From NCBI GenBank assembly GCA_018266775.1, contig JAFDZS010000001.1:248001-312000 (forward strand): a DNA stretch of 64,000 nt. Direction: 5' to 3'. Positions 43,061 through 49,646 of the stretch are shown here, piece after piece. The notes under the pieces are model-generated. The model did not search any database. It had not been told where the DNA came from and saw nothing but the letters and a program-made list of their open reading frames with translations. This DNA is from Bacteroidota bacterium. GTDB lineage: Bacteria; Bacteroidota; Bacteroidia; Chitinophagales; Chitinophagaceae. Within the stretch, counting starts at the first letter, position 1. Each line of letters opens with the position of its first letter. The position numbers were made by a program, and so were the translations under genes.

Positions 43061-43133
43061 GGTGCGGTAGCTCAGTCGGTAGAGCAAAGGACTGAAAATC
43101 CTTGTGTCGGCGGTTCGATCCCGCCCCACACCA
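43061..43133 (+). tRNA. tRNA-Phe (GAA)
   Basis: A 73-base cloverleaf: acceptor GGTGCGG, D arm GCTCAGTCGGTAGAGC, anticodon arm AAGGA-CTGAAAA-TCCTT with anticodon GAA at 43094-43096, variable GTGTC, T arm GGCGG-TTCGATC-CCGCC, acceptor CCACACC and discriminator A. The CCA end is not encoded. One acceptor pair (C5 with A68) is a mismatch, which is unusual but leaves the other six pairs. A terminator follows at once. Confidence 0.93.
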
Positions 43134-43139
43134 CTTAAA

Positions 43140-43165
43140 CCTCAGCAGCAATGCTGGGGTTTTTT
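43140..43165 (+). terminator. Terminator of tRNA-Phe
   Basis: CCTCAGCA-GCAA-TGCTGGGG (one G-T pair, GCAA tetraloop) followed by six T. Confidence 0.8.
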
Positions 43166-43584
43166 GTTTATTGAAAACCAGTTTGTGGGCTATGTGAAGA
43201 GGTTTAGATTGATGAATATTTCTGTTAGTGAATCCTTGAGACAGTAAAATGATGGAAGTGGCATACACCTATATTGGCCACATAAGTATATAGGGTACAT
43301 AGGTAAATACACGAAGGCAGGAGGAAGATTGATGTATAATTTATGTTGCTCACAGCGTCGCAGAGGCACGGATTGGGGCTTTTAGGTTTGCAGAGGACTT
43401 TGTTTGTGCGAATAACTCGGTATGTAGTGACCCGTGGGTAACAATGGTTTACCTTATTCATTTAATTGTTGCATTCGTGAGACACGAACGCAAGCGGAGA
43501 ATTTTAATTAGATATGAATGTCTGTTCATTAAGCATGGAACCGGGACTCGAAATAAAATTATCCAATAAGCAACTTATTCTAAG
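43166..43584. other. Gene-free left border of the accessory cassette
   Basis: About 420 bases with no credible gene. It contains the left copy of the inverted repeat (43472-43497) and otherwise unremarkable sequence. It separates tRNA-Phe from the FRG-TPR gene. Confidence 0.5.
43472..43497 (+). repeat. Left copy of the cassette-flanking inverted repeat
   Basis: Its reverse complement matches 49531-49556 at 23 of 26 bases. Inside it TTCGTG-AGA-CACGAA is a small palindrome, so it may be a REP-like element. Confidence 0.5.
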
Positions 43585-45450
43585 TTATTCAATTTCTTTT
43601 TTTAGTTTTTTAAAGTCTGATTCGGAAATTTTATAATTTTTATAAAGGTTTAAATCTGCATAATCATTATAAAACTCTTTCCAAAATTCCTGAATGCTGT
43701 CAAATTCGTTTATAGATATCCGGTAATTTTCAATAGCCTTCAATTTGTCTCCTTTGCACAAATAGTAGTGCCCCATACTTTTATTACCAAAATCTTTGCA
43801 ACCTAATTCAATAGCTTTGGTTATGTTTTGTTCAGCATCATTCAGATTTTTTACACTTAAATAACAGAACCCAATATTGTTAAATGCTTGTGCATAATAT
43901 TCCTGATTTAATTGTATGCATTGAGACAAGTACTCCTGTGCTTTTCCGATTTTGCCTAACTTAAAAAATACCACTCCTAAAAAATTACAGCATTCATCGT
44001 TTTTACTATTAATTTCAAAGCCTTTGCTGAAACACTCTTCAGCCTGCTTAAGCTGTTTCAATTTTAAATAACAATGACCCATATGACAAACAGCACTATC
44101 ATCTTTCGGATTAATTTCAAAAGCTTTTGAGAATTTAGTCAGAGCAATTTTATAGTTTTTCAAGTTAAAATTTACTTCCCCCAAGCCAAACCATAGATCT
44201 GCGTCATTTTTATCTATGGTTTGCCCTAATTTAAAATACTTAAGAGCTAATTCAAACTTATCGGTTATATTATACAAATTAGCCAGATTATTAATAGGCT
44301 TTATATTTTTCTTATCCAATGTCATTGCTTTTTTATAATTAGCAATGGCCTGATTAAAGTCTGTCGTTCTGCCACCTTTAATAAATTTATCTTCGTATGC
44401 AATGCCCCTATTATACCATAAATCAGCATCTTTCGGTTTAAGTTTTATTGCTGAAGAAAAAGATATAATTGCGTCTTCATAATTTTTATAGATAGTAAGA
44501 TAAATGTACCCTCTTTCGAAAAAAGCTTCAGCGAGATTTTTATCCAATTCAATAGCTTTTGAATAATATTCGACTGCGTTTTTATAAAGGCCTAAATCAT
44601 CGTTTTGTAACTTGGCCTTTTGATGCGAAACTTTTCCCATCTGATAGTAATCAAAAGGGTTTTTCATTTTATAACTTCTTTTTGCATTGTTTGCCTGCAG
44701 ATAGCCAAGAAAATCAGGATAAATGGATTCCTCATGTATGCCAGCCACTATACCCAACTCAGACATAATATTTTCTTTTGCCATCTTATCAATAATAATC
44801 TCAAAATCTATCTGCTCATTTTCTATTATGCCTTTACTATTAAAAATGAATATACTTTCCTGCTTAATTATTCTTGAATTAGAGTGGTAAGGGCGGTAGG
44901 TTTGAATTTTGTCTTTTAACTGGTTTAATATATCACCAATTTTCTTTGTATTCTCTATATCACCCCATTCTTTAAAATCTACAATTTCATTGAAAATAGA
45001 TCGCTTGTTATAATTCATACAATACACTTTACCATCTTCACCATTAATTCCAGCATAATCAGAGGCTGCCATGTATAAAGCAACAAGTGAACTATAACTA
45101 AAATCAATTAATAGTGTTGATGCCCCAAAGTGTTGCATTTCTGCGAGCAAACGTAAATCGCTCATTCCTTTGATAACAGGATGCGTGTCTTCCCGCTTTC
45201 TCGCCTCTGAGATGCTATCCTCCAGGTAAAGAATAATTTCGTCTGAATTAATTGTAGCGTCTGGATATCCGCTGCTTTTTTTGGCATCACTTAATCTTCT
45301 AACTACTCCGGATGTTACGGGCCATTGCGCATTCGCTTGTCCTCTAAAAATATACTTACTCAGATTGTCGCCTTGTGAATTAATTGAGTTAATTGCGTCT
45401 ACATATTCATTTAGCGTTTTAATTGGCATTTTTAAATAGGCTTTGACCAT
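43585..45450 (-). CDS. FRG-domain protein with TPR repeats
   Basis: A 621-residue, probably cytoplasmic protein. The FRG domain is N-terminal: F35-R36-G37 in YIFRGQANAQWP, then LLAEMQHFGASTLLIDFS (101-118) with ALYMAA, and RIIKQESIFIF (193-203). From about 285 to 600 there are roughly nine tetratricopeptide repeats (for example AVEYYSKAIELDKNLAEAFF). FRG domains are frequent in phage-defence and toxin loci, but their biochemical activity is not established to my knowledge. TPRs usually bind partners or sense ligands. It lies 266 bases downstream of the STAND NTPase on the same strand, in the same A+T-rich island. Confidence 0.78.
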   Translation of the reverse strand: MVKAYLKMPIKTLNEYVDAINSINSQGDNLSKYIFRGQANAQWPVTSGVVRRLSDAKKSSGYPDATINSDEIILYLEDSISEARKREDTHPVIKGMSDLRLLAEMQHFGASTLLIDFSYSSLVALYMAASDYAGINGEDGKVYCMNYNKRSIFNEIVDFKEWGDIENTKKIGDILNQLKDKIQTYRPYHSNSRIIKQESIFIFNSKGIIENEQIDFEIIIDKMAKENIMSELGIVAGIHEESIYPDFLGYLQANNAKRSYKMKNPFDYYQMGKVSHQKAKLQNDDLGLYKNAVEYYSKAIELDKNLAEAFFERGYIYLTIYKNYEDAIISFSSAIKLKPKDADLWYNRGIAYEDKFIKGGRTTDFNQAIANYKKAMTLDKKNIKPINNLANLYNITDKFELALKYFKLGQTIDKNDADLWFGLGEVNFNLKNYKIALTKFSKAFEINPKDDSAVCHMGHCYLKLKQLKQAEECFSKGFEINSKNDECCNFLGVVFFKLGKIGKAQEYLSQCIQLNQEYYAQAFNNIGFCYLSVKNLNDAEQNITKAIELGCKDFGNKSMGHYYLCKGDKLKAIENYRISINEFDSIQEFWKEFYNDYADLNLYKNYKISESDFKKLKKEIE

Positions 45451-45716
45451 ATATTTAATAATTGGTAATGAGATTAGGGTGAATTGTTTATTATTATATA
45501 TAAGATATTCTAAATTATTTTATTTTTTTAATAAATATAAAGAGAAACAGGTGTTTATTAGTTGGAATGTGGGTTTTATCCGATGGTGGGGGTTGTGAAT
45601 ATAACAGATAGTATTTTGAGGAAAAATGATCAATGCTACCCAATTAATATGAAAGTAACACAGGGAATTATGTCCTAAGCAATTGGGTTTATGTCTGAAA
45701 ATGATCGTTTCTTGAA
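45451..45716. other. Spacer between the STAND NTPase and FRG-TPR genes
   Basis: 266 very A+T-rich bases; no exact -7 box and no terminator-like hairpin found by eye. Whether the FRG-TPR gene has its own promoter is therefore open. Confidence 0.35.
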
Positions 45717-47816
45717 TTATTGAATCTCTGTTGGTGGTTTTTTTATTGTAAACACTCCGTGTAGCAAATCCGTTGTTGCTCCAGTTTTTTTATCTACATA
45801 ATACACAAAATATCTAGGACTTGTATTGTTAAAAACATCTAATTTATCGTTCTTGATTGTAAATGTTTTAGTGATTCCCTGAAATTTTAATGATTGCAGT
45901 GAAACTTCATCCATCGGGTATTTACCATTATTAAAAAGAACTTTCACCCTTATCCAACCATCCTCTGAGTTTTGAATTGTTGGAATATCAAATGAGAATT
46001 TGTAGCCAGATTGTTTAATGTCTTTGGAACTAATTGATCCGTCCGGATTAGCCATATTTAAAATTTTAAAATTGGATATATCTATTTTGGGCAATGATTT
46101 TATTGCTGTATTGGCATTAAGTTTAGCTAATTCTGCATTAGCAGATGATAGATTTTTTTCCAATTCTTCATTCTGATCACTCAAATAATTGGTTTTATCA
46201 ATAAGAGCTTGCAAATCTTCACGTAATGTTAGACCCACCTGAAAAAATGAATCTAGTGATTTTTTTTGTCGCTTAATAGTAATGTTATAATCTTTAATGG
46301 CTTGTTCATTCATTGCGAGATTTTCAACTTTGACTGTTTCAGGGATTGGTTTATTATTTGTAATTAAATTATTCAATTGAGTAATTGAATCTTTAGCGAA
46401 CTGAATGGCTAATTTTGAAGCATTCAATTGCTTTTCTAACCCTTGCGCCGTTTTATCATTTACAAAATTTATATAAATCCTGAAAATAAAAATTGCTAAG
46501 GAAATTATTATCAAACTTGCGACTACTCCAATCGTTAAAGTTATTTTCTTTGCTTTAGTCGCCGATTTTTTCAAATCTATGGCCTGCTTTTCTATTTTGG
46601 ACGCCTCCTCATGTATTTCTCTTGCAATTCGTTCAGTTTTGCTTTCAAAAATTTGTTTTGCCAATCTATCATGCACTATCTCTATTTCACTGTCGGCTTC
46701 CTTGCCCACAACACGGATAATTCCAGTATTCTCTGAAATTTGATAAGCGAGTTTCCTAAGGTATTCATCATTACCCGCAAACTTATCTATTGTAATTGTT
46801 AATCGCTTTCCAGATTCGTTTAAAAGCTTATTTTCTATCAAATACCTTAACTCGGGATACTTCTCAATACTTTCTTCGTAATAATGCCTGATCAGTTGGG
46901 TGTCGTTATGTTCTTCAACAAACTCAGGAGTAACCTCACTAAGTTGTTTTTGATGACTTTTTTTAAAAAGCTGAAAACAATAAATGCTAAGCACAAATGG
47001 ATCTACTTCTTTATTAACTAAATCTTTATCAACATTTCCACTTACCACACCATCGTCTCTCCAGAGTGCAGGAGTGCCAATTGTTTTAATAATTAATTCT
47101 GCGGTTTTCCTTTTAATACTACTTTGTGAAGGACAAATTATAGCATCTAAGGCCTGTGAAGGAGAAAATCTTTTCAGTCTATAACGCACATCATTTATAG
47201 AAGGAATTAATAGAGTAAAATCATCGAGAAATCCAATCCAATCCTGACGTAAACTAAAAACTACTTTAAAACTTGAAATATTATTAATATAATCCACAGT
47301 TTTTAGAGCATCGGGAAGACGAAGTTCGATTAATTCTGAAAGCTGAAACATGAAACGATGCAACTTAAATGGATCACTTTTGTGCCCAAGTGTAAAAAGT
47401 TCTTCAAACTGATCAAAAAACAGGACAGGCTTTATAAGACCTTTAAAAATGACATTCTTTGCTGCATAATCAATTAGAGATTGACCATCGGTAAAGTCAG
47501 GAATACTTTGATCCCAAATCTTTAATTCTTCCACAATTCTCCTTTGTACCGAAACCAACGGATCTTCATCTTTATTAGCAAAATTAATTCGTATATATAT
47601 TGGATGAAAATATTCTCTTTTGAGCTGAGGTAGTAATTTGGCATGTATGAGAGAGGTTTTACCAGTGCCCGAGGCTCCATACAAAACAGTAAGCTGATGC
47701 TTTCTGATCAGGTTAACAAGTTCTTCGACTTCAAGTGTCCTGCCAAAAAATATATCCTCATCATCTTCTTTAAATGAAAAGGGACCCCGGAATGGATTTT
47801 CAAAAATGGGTGTCAT
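45717..47816 (-). CDS. STAND-type P-loop NTPase with one membrane helix
   Basis: A 699-residue protein. NPFRGPFSFKEDDEDIFFGR at 7-26 is the typical entry to novel-STAND NTPases, Walker A is GASGTGKTS (47-55), and Walker B is VLFFDQFEELF (131-141, D135). A winged-helix-like part ends at IEIVHDRLAKQIFESK (378-393). Then comes a coiled coil/linker, a single transmembrane helix (about 424-447), a second coiled coil (~455-560) and a beta-rich C-terminal domain (~575-699). Usual STAND sensor repeats (WD40, TPR) are missing; the outer coiled coil and beta domain may sense instead. Its ATG overlaps the upstream TGA (ATGA, 47813-47816), so it is coupled to the SIR2-TIR gene. Confidence 0.8.
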   Translation of the reverse strand: MTPIFENPFRGPFSFKEDDEDIFFGRTLEVEELVNLIRKHQLTVLYGASGTGKTSLIHAKLLPQLKREYFHPIYIRINFANKDEDPLVSVQRRIVEELKIWDQSIPDFTDGQSLIDYAAKNVIFKGLIKPVLFFDQFEELFTLGHKSDPFKLHRFMFQLSELIELRLPDALKTVDYINNISSFKVVFSLRQDWIGFLDDFTLLIPSINDVRYRLKRFSPSQALDAIICPSQSSIKRKTAELIIKTIGTPALWRDDGVVSGNVDKDLVNKEVDPFVLSIYCFQLFKKSHQKQLSEVTPEFVEEHNDTQLIRHYYEESIEKYPELRYLIENKLLNESGKRLTITIDKFAGNDEYLRKLAYQISENTGIIRVVGKEADSEIEIVHDRLAKQIFESKTERIAREIHEEASKIEKQAIDLKKSATKAKKITLTIGVVASLIIISLAIFIFRIYINFVNDKTAQGLEKQLNASKLAIQFAKDSITQLNNLITNNKPIPETVKVENLAMNEQAIKDYNITIKRQKKSLDSFFQVGLTLREDLQALIDKTNYLSDQNEELEKNLSSANAELAKLNANTAIKSLPKIDISNFKILNMANPDGSISSKDIKQSGYKFSFDIPTIQNSEDGWIRVKVLFNNGKYPMDEVSLQSLKFQGITKTFTIKNDKLDVFNNTSPRYFVYYVDKKTGATTDLLHGVFTIKKPPTEIQ

Positions 47817-49099
47817 GCTATTATGTTTTTCGTTTCACTAAATAGTCGATCAAATCCACCATGATTTTCTCCAAACCGGAATTCGCTTTTAATTAGTTCG
47901 GGTAATTTATCTATATAATTCCTTTCGTTATCAACAAAATATGGAACAATATTTATTTTTTTATGTATATTAGAATGCGCTGCTACATCATTCCTAGCTT
48001 TTGCAGAGTACCACTCAATATCCCTGATATAATTCAAGTCACTGCTCAATGTGTTAAAAAGCCCTTCTGATATTACACTTAAAAGCATTTTAGTTTTAGG
48101 ATTCATTATATAATCCTTGATCTCATTTTCATGGCTTCCAATAGTTTGAGTTTCCTCATCAAAATAAGTTACTACACCCTGTTCCCTAAACTTATGATAT
48201 AAACTCTTTGCAACAACTAAATCATGCGATTTACTATAACTAATAAATATCTGGCTGTTTTCATATTTGTTTTTAAATTCTTCTTTTTTAAGTGCCTTTT
48301 GATAAAATTTATCAACAAAATCATCAACAGGAGAAGTATGTATGAGTTTAATATTATGCTTTGCAAAAAAGAACTCCTGGTACTTTAATTTTGTCGGGTG
48401 ATCATTTACTATATATATTGGTCTTGATGAAAATGGGTTATTTGATAAAACACGTATACAGTACCTCATAAACAAATCCGGGAAATCACATCCAATAAAG
48501 AGGAGTGTTTTATTTTGTAAGTAAGACAAAAGGGAATTATCTGAACTATGCTTAGGTGAATTCGCTAATGAATACATTGATTCTAATAATTCTTCGTCAT
48601 TTATTGCACAAAGTGGGCTGTCAAGATTATCAAATAGATATATTATCTTTCGCAGACCATTATTAAAATTAATGCTTGGCAAGCCATGCATCGTTATTGT
48701 ATCGTTTTTATAGATTTCTACCTCTTCATTATTATTTTTTCTAAATTCTGTTTCAAATTCTTTAAAAACATTTGCTATCAGGAATATTTTAAAATATTTC
48801 AGATTTGCTAATTGAGTTAAGAATTTTAGTCTTTTCTTTTTTTCATTTAGTAACTTATAGCAACCTAGGAGGCTATTATAATCGAATTCAGGTATTGCTA
48901 AAGGGAGCTCACTCAACAAGGCAGGTGGTTCTGGCCATTCTTCTGATGGATAAAAAGATTCACGAATTATATATTCATGAATATTTATTGAATTCCCTTG
49001 TTCGGTAGGCACTTTAAATAATTCACAACCTATTATAGGAATTAGATTTCCTGAAGTATACTTATGGATCAAGTTATCAATAACAGAATCGATATTCAT
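47813..49099 (-). CDS. SIR2-like and TIR domain fusion protein
   Basis: A 428-residue protein. Residues ~10-265 look like a SIR2-type Rossmann domain: LIPIIGCELFKV (19-30) at the nucleotide loop, a His-Gly at 138-139 (ITMHGLP) in the position of the SIR2 catalytic histidine, and LLFIGCDFPDLFMRYCIRVL (199-218), typical of SIR2-like defence proteins. The usual GAGxS is altered to IIGCE. Residues ~281-405 are a TIR domain: SQIFISYSKSHD, TYFDEETQTIG and YIRDIEWYSAKA, with E362 as candidate NADase glutamate. NAD+ cleavage is the expected activity (family knowledge). It is the first gene of the cassette. Confidence 0.75.
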   Translation of the reverse strand: MNIDSVIDNLIHKYTSGNLIPIIGCELFKVPTEQGNSINIHEYIIRESFYPSEEWPEPPALLSELPLAIPEFDYNSLLGCYKLLNEKKKRLKFLTQLANLKYFKIFLIANVFKEFETEFRKNNNEEVEIYKNDTITMHGLPSINFNNGLRKIIYLFDNLDSPLCAINDEELLESMYSLANSPKHSSDNSLLSYLQNKTLLFIGCDFPDLFMRYCIRVLSNNPFSSRPIYIVNDHPTKLKYQEFFFAKHNIKLIHTSPVDDFVDKFYQKALKKEEFKNKYENSQIFISYSKSHDLVVAKSLYHKFREQGVVTYFDEETQTIGSHENEIKDYIMNPKTKMLLSVISEGLFNTLSSDLNYIRDIEWYSAKARNDVAAHSNIHKKINIVPYFVDNERNYIDKLPELIKSEFRFGENHGGFDRLFSETKNIIA

Positions 49100-49646
49100 A
49101 AAAGTGGAAAGGTTTAGAGTTGGGTAAATGTATATTGCAGTTATAGCTGCTTAAATTTAGTCAGTTATGATGGATACAGGTATACGTAGAAGCCGAAAAT
49201 TAAATTGCGGTTTTTACGTAAGAATTATTAGTAAAAGATTAATTAAGCAGAGTAAGGTTTGCAATTTTTATTGAACTAATTTTTTTTCTTTTTAAAGAAT
49301 ATGCATGGGAGTTTGTTTGGCTTTTGATAGGTGTAAAGTACTGCTGAAGATGATAGATAAAAAAACAGGTAATAATAAGGTTGCGGGGAGGTTTAGGGAT
49401 CGAAAGGGGTAATAATAGGGTTGCTCGATGAAAGGGAAGTATTTAAGCTGGGGTCTTCTGGATTAGTTGGTTTTGGGGTTGTGCAGACGCTAAGGAAAAT
49501 TAGCTTTCATTGACCACCCAAATATAGCTTCCGCCTGCGTTCGTCCCTCACGAATGTACATATATAACTCTTTATCTGTTCCGCTAACATTAAGTCATAT
49601 CACTCAAATTCAAACCTGTTTCCTGTATGAATAATGAGAAGTCAAT
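49100..49646. other. Gene-free right border of the accessory cassette
   Basis: 547 bases without a credible gene. Contents: a weak -7-like TACATTTA upstream of the SIR2-TIR gene, two 17-bp direct repeats of GGTAATAATAAGGTTGC (49368-49384 and, with one change, 49408-49424), and the right inverted repeat. No integrase, att-like duplicate of the tRNA end, or transposase was found. Confidence 0.5.
49531..49556 (+). repeat. Right copy of the cassette-flanking inverted repeat
   Basis: Starts CCGCCTGCGTTCGT and ends CTCACGAATG; matches the reverse complement of 43472-43497 at 23 of 26 bases. Confidence 0.5.

What the first reader, a model, noticed from the sequence alone, without database searches (positions are those of the whole stretch)
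47813..49099. SIR2-like and TIR domains in one polypeptide, with an altered SIR2 nucleotide loop
Both domains are usually found as alternative NADase effectors, so a fusion is notable. The SIR2-like half keeps a His-Gly (138-139), but its first loop reads IIGCELF where active enzymes have GAGxS. The TIR half keeps a candidate catalytic Glu362. Possibly the SIR2 half has become a nucleotide sensor for a TIR effector, or the reverse.
Basis: partly seen in the sequence, partly recalled or inferred. Interest (0 to 1): 0.6.

Follow-up and report, generated by a model that had tools for sequence, protein, structure and literature searches.

The report
Dead sirtuin tethering a TIR effector
This bacterial gene fuses a sirtuin-like domain that has lost its catalytic residues to a TIR domain that keeps its active-site glutamate, and it travels as a two-gene unit with a predicted membrane-spanning switch ATPase, so it is probably a phage-defence module in which a dead enzyme was reused as the connector between sensor and killer.

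Summary
The fusion is real. window:47813-49099 on the minus strand encodes a 428-aa SIR2-like–TIR protein whose stop overlaps by 4 bp the start of a STAND ATPase gene (nSTAND1 domain; 45717-47816, minus) with one predicted transmembrane helix. Searches found the same two-gene unit in Bacteroidota, Pseudomonadota, Gemmatimonadota and Aminicenantes, and SIR2-domain and ATPase distances track each other (Mantel r 0.89). The SIR2 half is degenerate in the whole family: GAGxS became G-P/x-[E/D], and the catalytic His site is never His or Asn (0/57 genes). Other SIR2_2 proteins of the same order mostly keep all motifs. Glu362 is invariant in the window's clade. The ATPase and the dead SIR2 are constant, but the C-terminal module varies: TIR, a TIR without Glu, or EAD11, a known effector-docking domain. 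Best reading: a membrane-anchored STAND defence module in which a pseudo-sirtuin couples the receptor to a TIR NADase. The recQ–tRNA-Phe site it occupies holds Qat, SoFic or restriction genes in sister genomes. NADase activity, coupling and defence are inferred. New variant of known SIR2/TIR/STAND defence.

The parts
47813..49099 (-). pseudo-SIR2-TIR gene, 428 aa (stop codon included)
   Evidence: ORF; Pfam; PDB profile; AlphaFold/Foldseek
48290..49099 (-). SIR2-like domain, residues about 1-270
49016..49036 (-). first nucleotide loop IIGCELF (residues 22-28) in place of GAGxS
48764..48778 (-). residues 108-112 I-A-N-V-F in place of T-T-N-x-D: Asn110 kept, Asp position is Phe112
48629..48634 (-). 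Phe156-Asp157 in place of the catalytic His-Gly
   Evidence: alignment to ThsA/KomC; counts
48683..48688 (-).
47816..48259 (-). TIR domain, residues about 281-428
48014..48016 (-). Glu362, invariant candidate TIR catalytic residue
45717..47816 (-). nSTAND1 ATPase (699 aa), 4-bp ATGA overlap with the upstream stop codon
   Evidence: Pfam nSTAND1 E 4e-28; operon survey
46917..47801 (-). STAND NTPase core (residues 6-300; GASGTGKTS Walker A, VLFFDQFEE Walker B, invariant R190; H382-D383 follow in the winged-helix part)
46482..46538 (-). single predicted transmembrane helix (residues 427-445), Lys/Arg-rich on its N side
45747..46004 (-). C-terminal beta-rich region (residues 605-690), predicted outside the cytoplasm; model confidence there is low

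Best explanation
A two-gene, membrane-anchored STAND immune module. Steps: (1) a STAND ATPase sits in the inner membrane with its ATPase in the cytoplasm and a variable C-terminal sensor (here coiled coil plus beta region; elsewhere WD40 or TPR) on the other side. (2) A trigger makes the ATPase bind ATP and oligomerise. (3) It engages the N-terminal SIR2-like domain of the partner protein, which is no longer an enzyme but a docking/oligomerisation adaptor kept from a former SIR2 effector. (4) The attached TIR domains are brought together and cleave NAD+ (Glu362), giving abortive infection. Shown here: the two-gene unit, its conservation and co-divergence, loss of SIR2 catalytic motifs, conservation of the TIR Glu in the window's clade, intact ATPase motifs, the predicted TM helix, swapping of the C-terminal module, and location at a defence hotspot. 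Inferred: oligomerisation, physical docking, NADase activity, periplasmic sensing, anti-phage outcome.
For: Operon: 43 of 51 non-identical SIR2-like genes found independently of the ATPase have an nSTAND1 gene on the same strand within 120 bp downstream, many with 4-bp overlaps; L017 is a start-codon artefact (gap -286), two exceptions end at a contig end, the rest are L150, L151, L154, L173, L186. SIR2-domain and nSTAND1 distance matrices correlate at r 0.89, 0/2000 permutations, maximum 0.11. SIR2 catalytic death: His site F/L/Y/M in nearly all, never His or Asn (0/57); Asn of TTNxD kept in 11/57; GAG lost; profile alignment to ThsA/KomC. Control: non-module SIR2_2 proteins in the same order mostly keep GAGxS, TTNxD and HG, module members none. 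Module swapping: TIR with Glu (31), TIR-like without Glu (13), EAD11-type (12; Pfam hits up to E 9e-14) after the same pseudo-SIR2. One intact SIR2, without TIR, sits in the same position before an nSTAND1 gene (L091). TM helix after the ATPase in nearly all partners, Lys/Arg-rich on the N side; in EAD11-type loci a WD40 gene with signal-peptide-like start follows. Defence hotspot.
Against: No experiment on any member was found. The window's TIR is divergent (single-sequence Pfam score below cut-off) and only its Glu and a few fold residues were checked, so NADase activity could be weak or absent. Thirteen relatives lost the TIR Glu and 12 have EAD11-type tails instead, so the TIR enzyme is not essential to every version. 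Physical contact between the two proteins was not modelled (single-chain folding only). Membrane topology rests on hydropathy and charge counts. Window Asn110 is still Asn. Many loci come from MAG contigs and some are near-duplicates.
Confidence: 0.58

Rival explanations
1. The SIR2-like half is a ligand sensor: it binds NAD+, ADP-ribose or a cyclic-ADPR product and tunes the TIR domain.
For: The Rossmann-type SIR2 fold is retained, a Gly and the FIGxxF-D/N-W...R motif are strongly conserved, and the former third Gly of GAG is a conserved acid (E/D in 34 of 55), which could mark a repurposed pocket.
Against: The NAD-binding glycine loop is destroyed in all module members. The window itself departs even from the family (Phe112, Asp157). 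The domain persists when TIR is replaced by EAD11 or by a TIR without Glu, where tuning TIR would be pointless.
Confidence: 0.17
2. The SIR2 half is still an NADase with unorthodox residues, as PaAvs5 works with Asn-Gly instead of His-Gly.
For: PaAvs5-1 is active with NG and needs N110 and D112 (PMC12931631). The window keeps Asn110.
Against: In PaAvs5, Ala or Gln at the His/Asn site abolishes protection; here the site is Phe/Leu/Tyr/Met, never His/Asn in 57 genes; Asp112 is Phe in the window and GAGxS is gone.
Confidence: 0.05
3. Both halves are scaffolds: the TIR acts by TIR-TIR assembly and the real effector is another protein.
For: Relatives with TIR lacking Glu and with EAD11, and genomes with 18-44 EAD11 matches, show that versions without a TIR enzyme exist.
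Against: In the window's 22-row clade (support 100/99) the Glu is invariant despite about 25% identity. No other effector gene is conserved beside the window-type loci.
Confidence: 0.12
4. Not anti-phage: an envelope-stress, allorecognition or programmed-death switch using the same parts.
For: The sensor is predicted outside the cytoplasm; one Aminicenantes bin has several paralogues.
Against: Patchy distribution, AT-rich island (GC 0.32 against 0.41), and a recQ-tRNA-Phe hotspot holding Qat, SoFic or type I restriction genes in sister genomes.
Confidence: 0.15

Closest known systems
Thoeris (ThsA SIR2-SLOG + ThsB TIR)
   Same: Uses SIR2 and TIR domains; ThsA is the closest solved SIR2 relative.
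   Different: There the SIR2 is the NADase and SLOG binds the messenger made by a separate TIR; here the SIR2 is degenerate and fused to TIR, with no SLOG found and a STAND ATPase as partner.
Avs5 (SIR2-STAND, single protein)
   Same: SIR2-like domain coupled to a STAND ATPase; published NAD+ depletion as output (PMC12931631).
   Different: Avs5 needs an intact SIR2 site and is one polypeptide; here SIR2 is degenerate, the ATPase is a separate gene with a predicted TM helix, and TIR is the likely effector.
TIR-STAND (NLR-like) antiphage proteins, e.g. the P4-hotspot TIR-STAND-TPR protein (PMC9122126)
   Same: TIR effector, STAND switch, repeat sensor.
   Different: Effector and ATPase are on two proteins, bridged by a pseudo-SIR2; the ATPase is predicted to be membrane-anchored.
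EAD / nSTAND1 conflict systems (PMC7159879, PMC8195603)
   Same: nSTAND1 ATPase, variable effectors, small adaptor domains (EADs); inactive enzymes as parts are a described theme, and SIR2 and TIR are listed as alternative effectors.
   Different: A degenerate sirtuin as the constant partner of the ATPase, with TIR or EAD11 as its interchangeable tail, was not found described.
FAM118A/FAM118B
   Same: SIR2_2 proteins in which partnership and filament contacts govern NAD+ processing (PMC12700824).
   Different: Both FAM118 proteins need their Asn and His residues; not inactive.

Membership tests
SIR2_2 / sirtuin fold (structural membership) | SIR2-like Rossmann fold by profile and predicted structure | tested here: met
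Active SIR2 NADase | GAGxS loop | tested here: not met
   IIGCELF in the window; lost across the family
Active SIR2 NADase | TTNxD with catalytic Asn and Asp | tested here: not met
   window I-A-N-V-F: Asn kept, Asp is Phe; Asn in only 11/57 of the family
Active SIR2 NADase | His-Gly (or Asn-Gly) motif | tested here: not met
   Phe156-Asp157; 0/57 with His or Asn
TIR domain NADase | TIR fold by profile | tested here: met
TIR domain NADase | Catalytic Glu in the conserved helix | tested here: met
   Glu362 invariant in 19/19 of A2 and present in 31 of 44 TIR-like tails
TIR domain NADase | NAD+ cleavage | not testable with these tools
   needs an assay
Thoeris | ThsA with C-terminal SLOG, or TM-macro variant, plus separate ThsB TIR | tested here: not met
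   No SLOG or macro hit; partner is nSTAND1
Avs5 | SIR2 and STAND ATPase in one polypeptide | tested here: not met
   separate genes
STAND ATPase system (nSTAND1) | nSTAND1 P-loop ATPase with Walker A/B and a C-terminal sensor | tested here: met
EAD conflict system | EAD shared between ATPase protein and effector | tested here: not met
   no EAD hit in the window proteins; EAD11 only in sister variants
Any PADLOC-described system | hit to the system's own model over the whole protein | tested here: not met
   only partial TIR-region matches for the SIR2-TIR protein, and only a weak Cas6 match for the ATPase
Anti-phage defence | protection from phage | not testable with these tools
   location in a defence hotspot only

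The most novel reading that the evidence does not exclude
A catalytically dead sirtuin has become a general adaptor domain of bacterial immunity: it docks on transmembrane STAND receptors that watch the cell envelope and carries exchangeable tails (TIR NADase, dead TIR, EAD11), playing the part that Death-fold adaptors play in animal immunity.
Probability: 0.42. Interest if true: 0.75.

Novelty: new variant of a known kind. Interest (0 to 1): 0.58.

Why it matters
SIR2 and TIR are usually described as interchangeable NAD+-destroying effectors. Here an apparent former SIR2 effector seems to have been turned into the connector for a TIR effector, and the same dead domain carries other tails elsewhere. 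That would explain why some SIR2-like proteins in genomes lack catalytic residues, give a route by which immune modules swap effectors without rebuilding the receptor interface, and add a membrane-anchored receptor to a class mostly described as cytoplasmic. It also warns annotators not to call every SIR2_2 hit an NADase.

Tried and rejected
Plasmid, phage and viral-contig searches with the window protein or its alignment: no relative; one divergent relative on a Paraburkholderia megaplasmid. Single-sequence PDB search gave only noise; profiles were needed. His138-Gly139 as catalytic motif: rejected by alignment to ThsA/KomC. 'SIR2 is dead because His is lost' alone was rejected as insufficient after reading that PaAvs5 uses Asn-Gly; Asn, Asp and the GAG loop were therefore scored too, and the His site checked for Asn. 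An apparent intact SIR2 plus TIR protein (L246) was a false TIR call. The ATPase's C-terminal region gave no confident fold (pLDDT under 50), so its ligand was not pursued. Promoter scan found no more sites than chance. The FRG-TPR gene next door was not seen beside the module in the homologous loci listed and was treated as separate.

Full report
OBSERVATION. The gene lies at 47813-49099 on the minus strand, 428 aa. Alone, the protein scores below Pfam's cut-offs for TIR_2 and SIR2_2 and finds nothing useful in the PDB. A relatives search found six places with diverged homologues in the same family; a genome-contig scan and a phylum search added others. All 19 aligned members (A2) match both TIR_2 and SIR2_2. 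A profile of the SIR2 part hits ThsA (7uxt E 2.4e-9; 6lhx; 8bto; 8wc0) and KomC (9v0g, 8zsf). The AlphaFold2 model (pLDDT 76.8) matches ThsA, DSR2 and KomC by Foldseek. The fusion is therefore real.

THE SIR2 HALF IS DEGENERATE. In the profile alignment the Asn of ThsA's TTNYD falls on Thr/Ser in most members (Asn110 is kept in the window, but TT became I-A and the Asp became Phe112). The His of ThsA's HG falls on Phe/Leu/Tyr/Met (window Phe156-Asp157), and GAGxS became G-P/x-[E/D]-x. Over 57 module-type genes: G24 kept (55/55 with a letter), second position Pro in 35, third position Glu/Asp in 34, Asn in 11, His or Asn at the His site in 0. The benchmark matters: PaAvs5 is active with Asn-Gly, but loses protection with Ala or Gln at that site and with N110A or D112A (PMC12931631). 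The window fails at the loop, at the Asp and at the His/Asn site. As a control, other SIR2_2 proteins in the same order (L222-L230, L234, L236, L238, L240, L246, L250) mostly keep all three motifs, and the module members in the same sample keep none. Degeneration is a property of this module, not of SIR2_2 proteins in general.

THE TIR HALF. Glu362 is invariant in A2. Across 44 TIR-like tails, 31 keep it; 13, mostly from two other families of the order, have lost it together with the Asp of the second strand (L100 is ambiguous). The window sits in a well supported 22-row clade (100/99) in which every member keeps the Glu.

THE PARTNER. The stop codon of the fusion gene overlaps by 4 bp (ATGA) the start of a 699-aa nSTAND1 ATPase (Pfam E 4e-28; Walker A GASGTGKTS, Walker B VLFFDQFEE, invariant R190; Foldseek to ORC/STAND-type ATPases). 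Of 51 non-identical SIR2-like genes found without using the ATPase, 43 have such a gene on the same strand within 120 bp downstream. L017 is a start-codon artefact, L028 and L163 end at a contig end, and the remaining exceptions are L150, L151, L154, L173 and L186. Distances of the two proteins co-vary (Mantel r 0.89 over 51 pairs; 0.92 within the window's clade). Nearly every partner has one hydrophobic helix shortly after the ATPase with a Lys/Arg-rich N side, so the C-terminal part is predicted outside the cytoplasm. That part is WD40 (L010, L024, L179), TPR (L176, and from the sequence L023), or, in the window, a long helix and a low-confidence beta region. In several EAD11-type loci the ATPase is short and the next gene encodes a WD40 protein with a signal-peptide-like start, which fits extracytoplasmic sensing. 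This is inference from sequence.

EXCHANGEABLE TAIL. Behind the same pseudo-SIR2 domain, 12 genes in sister families carry about 90 residues in place of TIR; for eight of them Pfam was run, and six pass the EAD11 cut-off, one is weak and one has no hit. Two TIR-tailed proteins (L092, L105) fall inside the EAD11 part of the SIR2 tree, so tails have probably been swapped more than once. One locus has an intact SIR2 without TIR in the same position before an nSTAND1 gene (L091: LFLGAGVNY, TTNYD, VHGD). The simplest history, which the unrooted tree does not prove, is SIR2-effector plus STAND first, then a second effector or docking domain, then decay of the SIR2 site.

SURROUNDINGS. The module and a FRG-TPR gene (PADLOC PDC-S15) lie between tRNA-Phe (43061-43134) and housekeeping genes, in DNA of GC 0.32 against 0.41 for the window. 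In same-genus genomes with the recQ-tRNA-Phe arrangement the place holds a QatC gene (L190), SoFic (L195), or SoFic with a type I restriction-type gene (L196). The site is a defence hotspot, which is the main argument for a defence role.

MECHANISM. The best reading is given in the explanation section. Shown: conservation, linkage, residue states, predicted fold, tail exchange, hotspot. Inferred: docking of the pseudo-SIR2 on the ATPase, ATP-driven assembly, NAD+ cleavage, sensing side, anti-phage outcome. The adaptor reading is preferred over the nucleotide-sensor reading because the domain is the constant partner of the ATPase and remains when the TIR enzyme is gone. No direct binding test of either was possible.

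NOVELTY. Text searches of 5.39 million open papers found no description of 'SIR2-TIR' and only two papers using nSTAND1, neither describing this pair in the passages read. A SIR2_2 tree in PMC12700824 labels some members as carrying TIR, and EAD/nSTAND1 systems list SIR2 and TIR as alternative effectors. Subscription papers and most preprints were not searched, so earlier description cannot be ruled out. A reversed TIR-SIR2 protein with both sites intact (L231) shows that the fusion itself is not unique. What appears new is the pseudo-SIR2 as constant partner of a membrane STAND ATPase with exchangeable tails: a new variant of a known kind.

Noticed in passing
window 43061-49640: recQ-tRNA-Phe is a defence hotspot in this genus: sister genomes carry QatC, SoFic or type I restriction-type genes at the same junction, and the window island is AT-rich (GC 0.32).
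   Followed up: partly
window 43585-45450 (-): FRG domain plus TPR protein (PADLOC candidate PDC-S15) downstream of the module on the same strand; probably a separate defence gene.
   Followed up: no
L150-L161: Pseudo-SIR2-TIR relatives in which the TIR-like domain has also lost its catalytic Glu and the conserved Asp: doubly dead fusion proteins still mostly next to a STAND ATPase.
   Followed up: partly
L162-L173, L093: Pseudo-SIR2 followed by an EAD11-type domain instead of TIR, next to nSTAND1; four such genomes carry 18-44 EAD11 matches each.
   Followed up: partly
L231:629-2041 (+): Reversed TIR-SIR2 fusion with both TIR Glu and SIR2 catalytic motifs intact, in the same order.
   Followed up: no
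L055 (G000:C20:17392-17829): Own genome also encodes a SIR2 plus P-loop protein with GAG and TTN intact but Met-Gly in place of His-Gly; possibly another non-canonical site like the Asn-Gly of PaAvs5.
   Followed up: no
L014, L174-L178 (G697, Aminicenantes): One genome bin carries at least six full-length or nearly full-length pseudo-SIR2-TIR paralogues, each beside its own nSTAND1 gene.
   Followed up: partly
L088, L089, L104: nSTAND1 genes preceded by genes with CHAT-like sequence features in Chitinophagaceae; not checked by profile.
   Followed up: no
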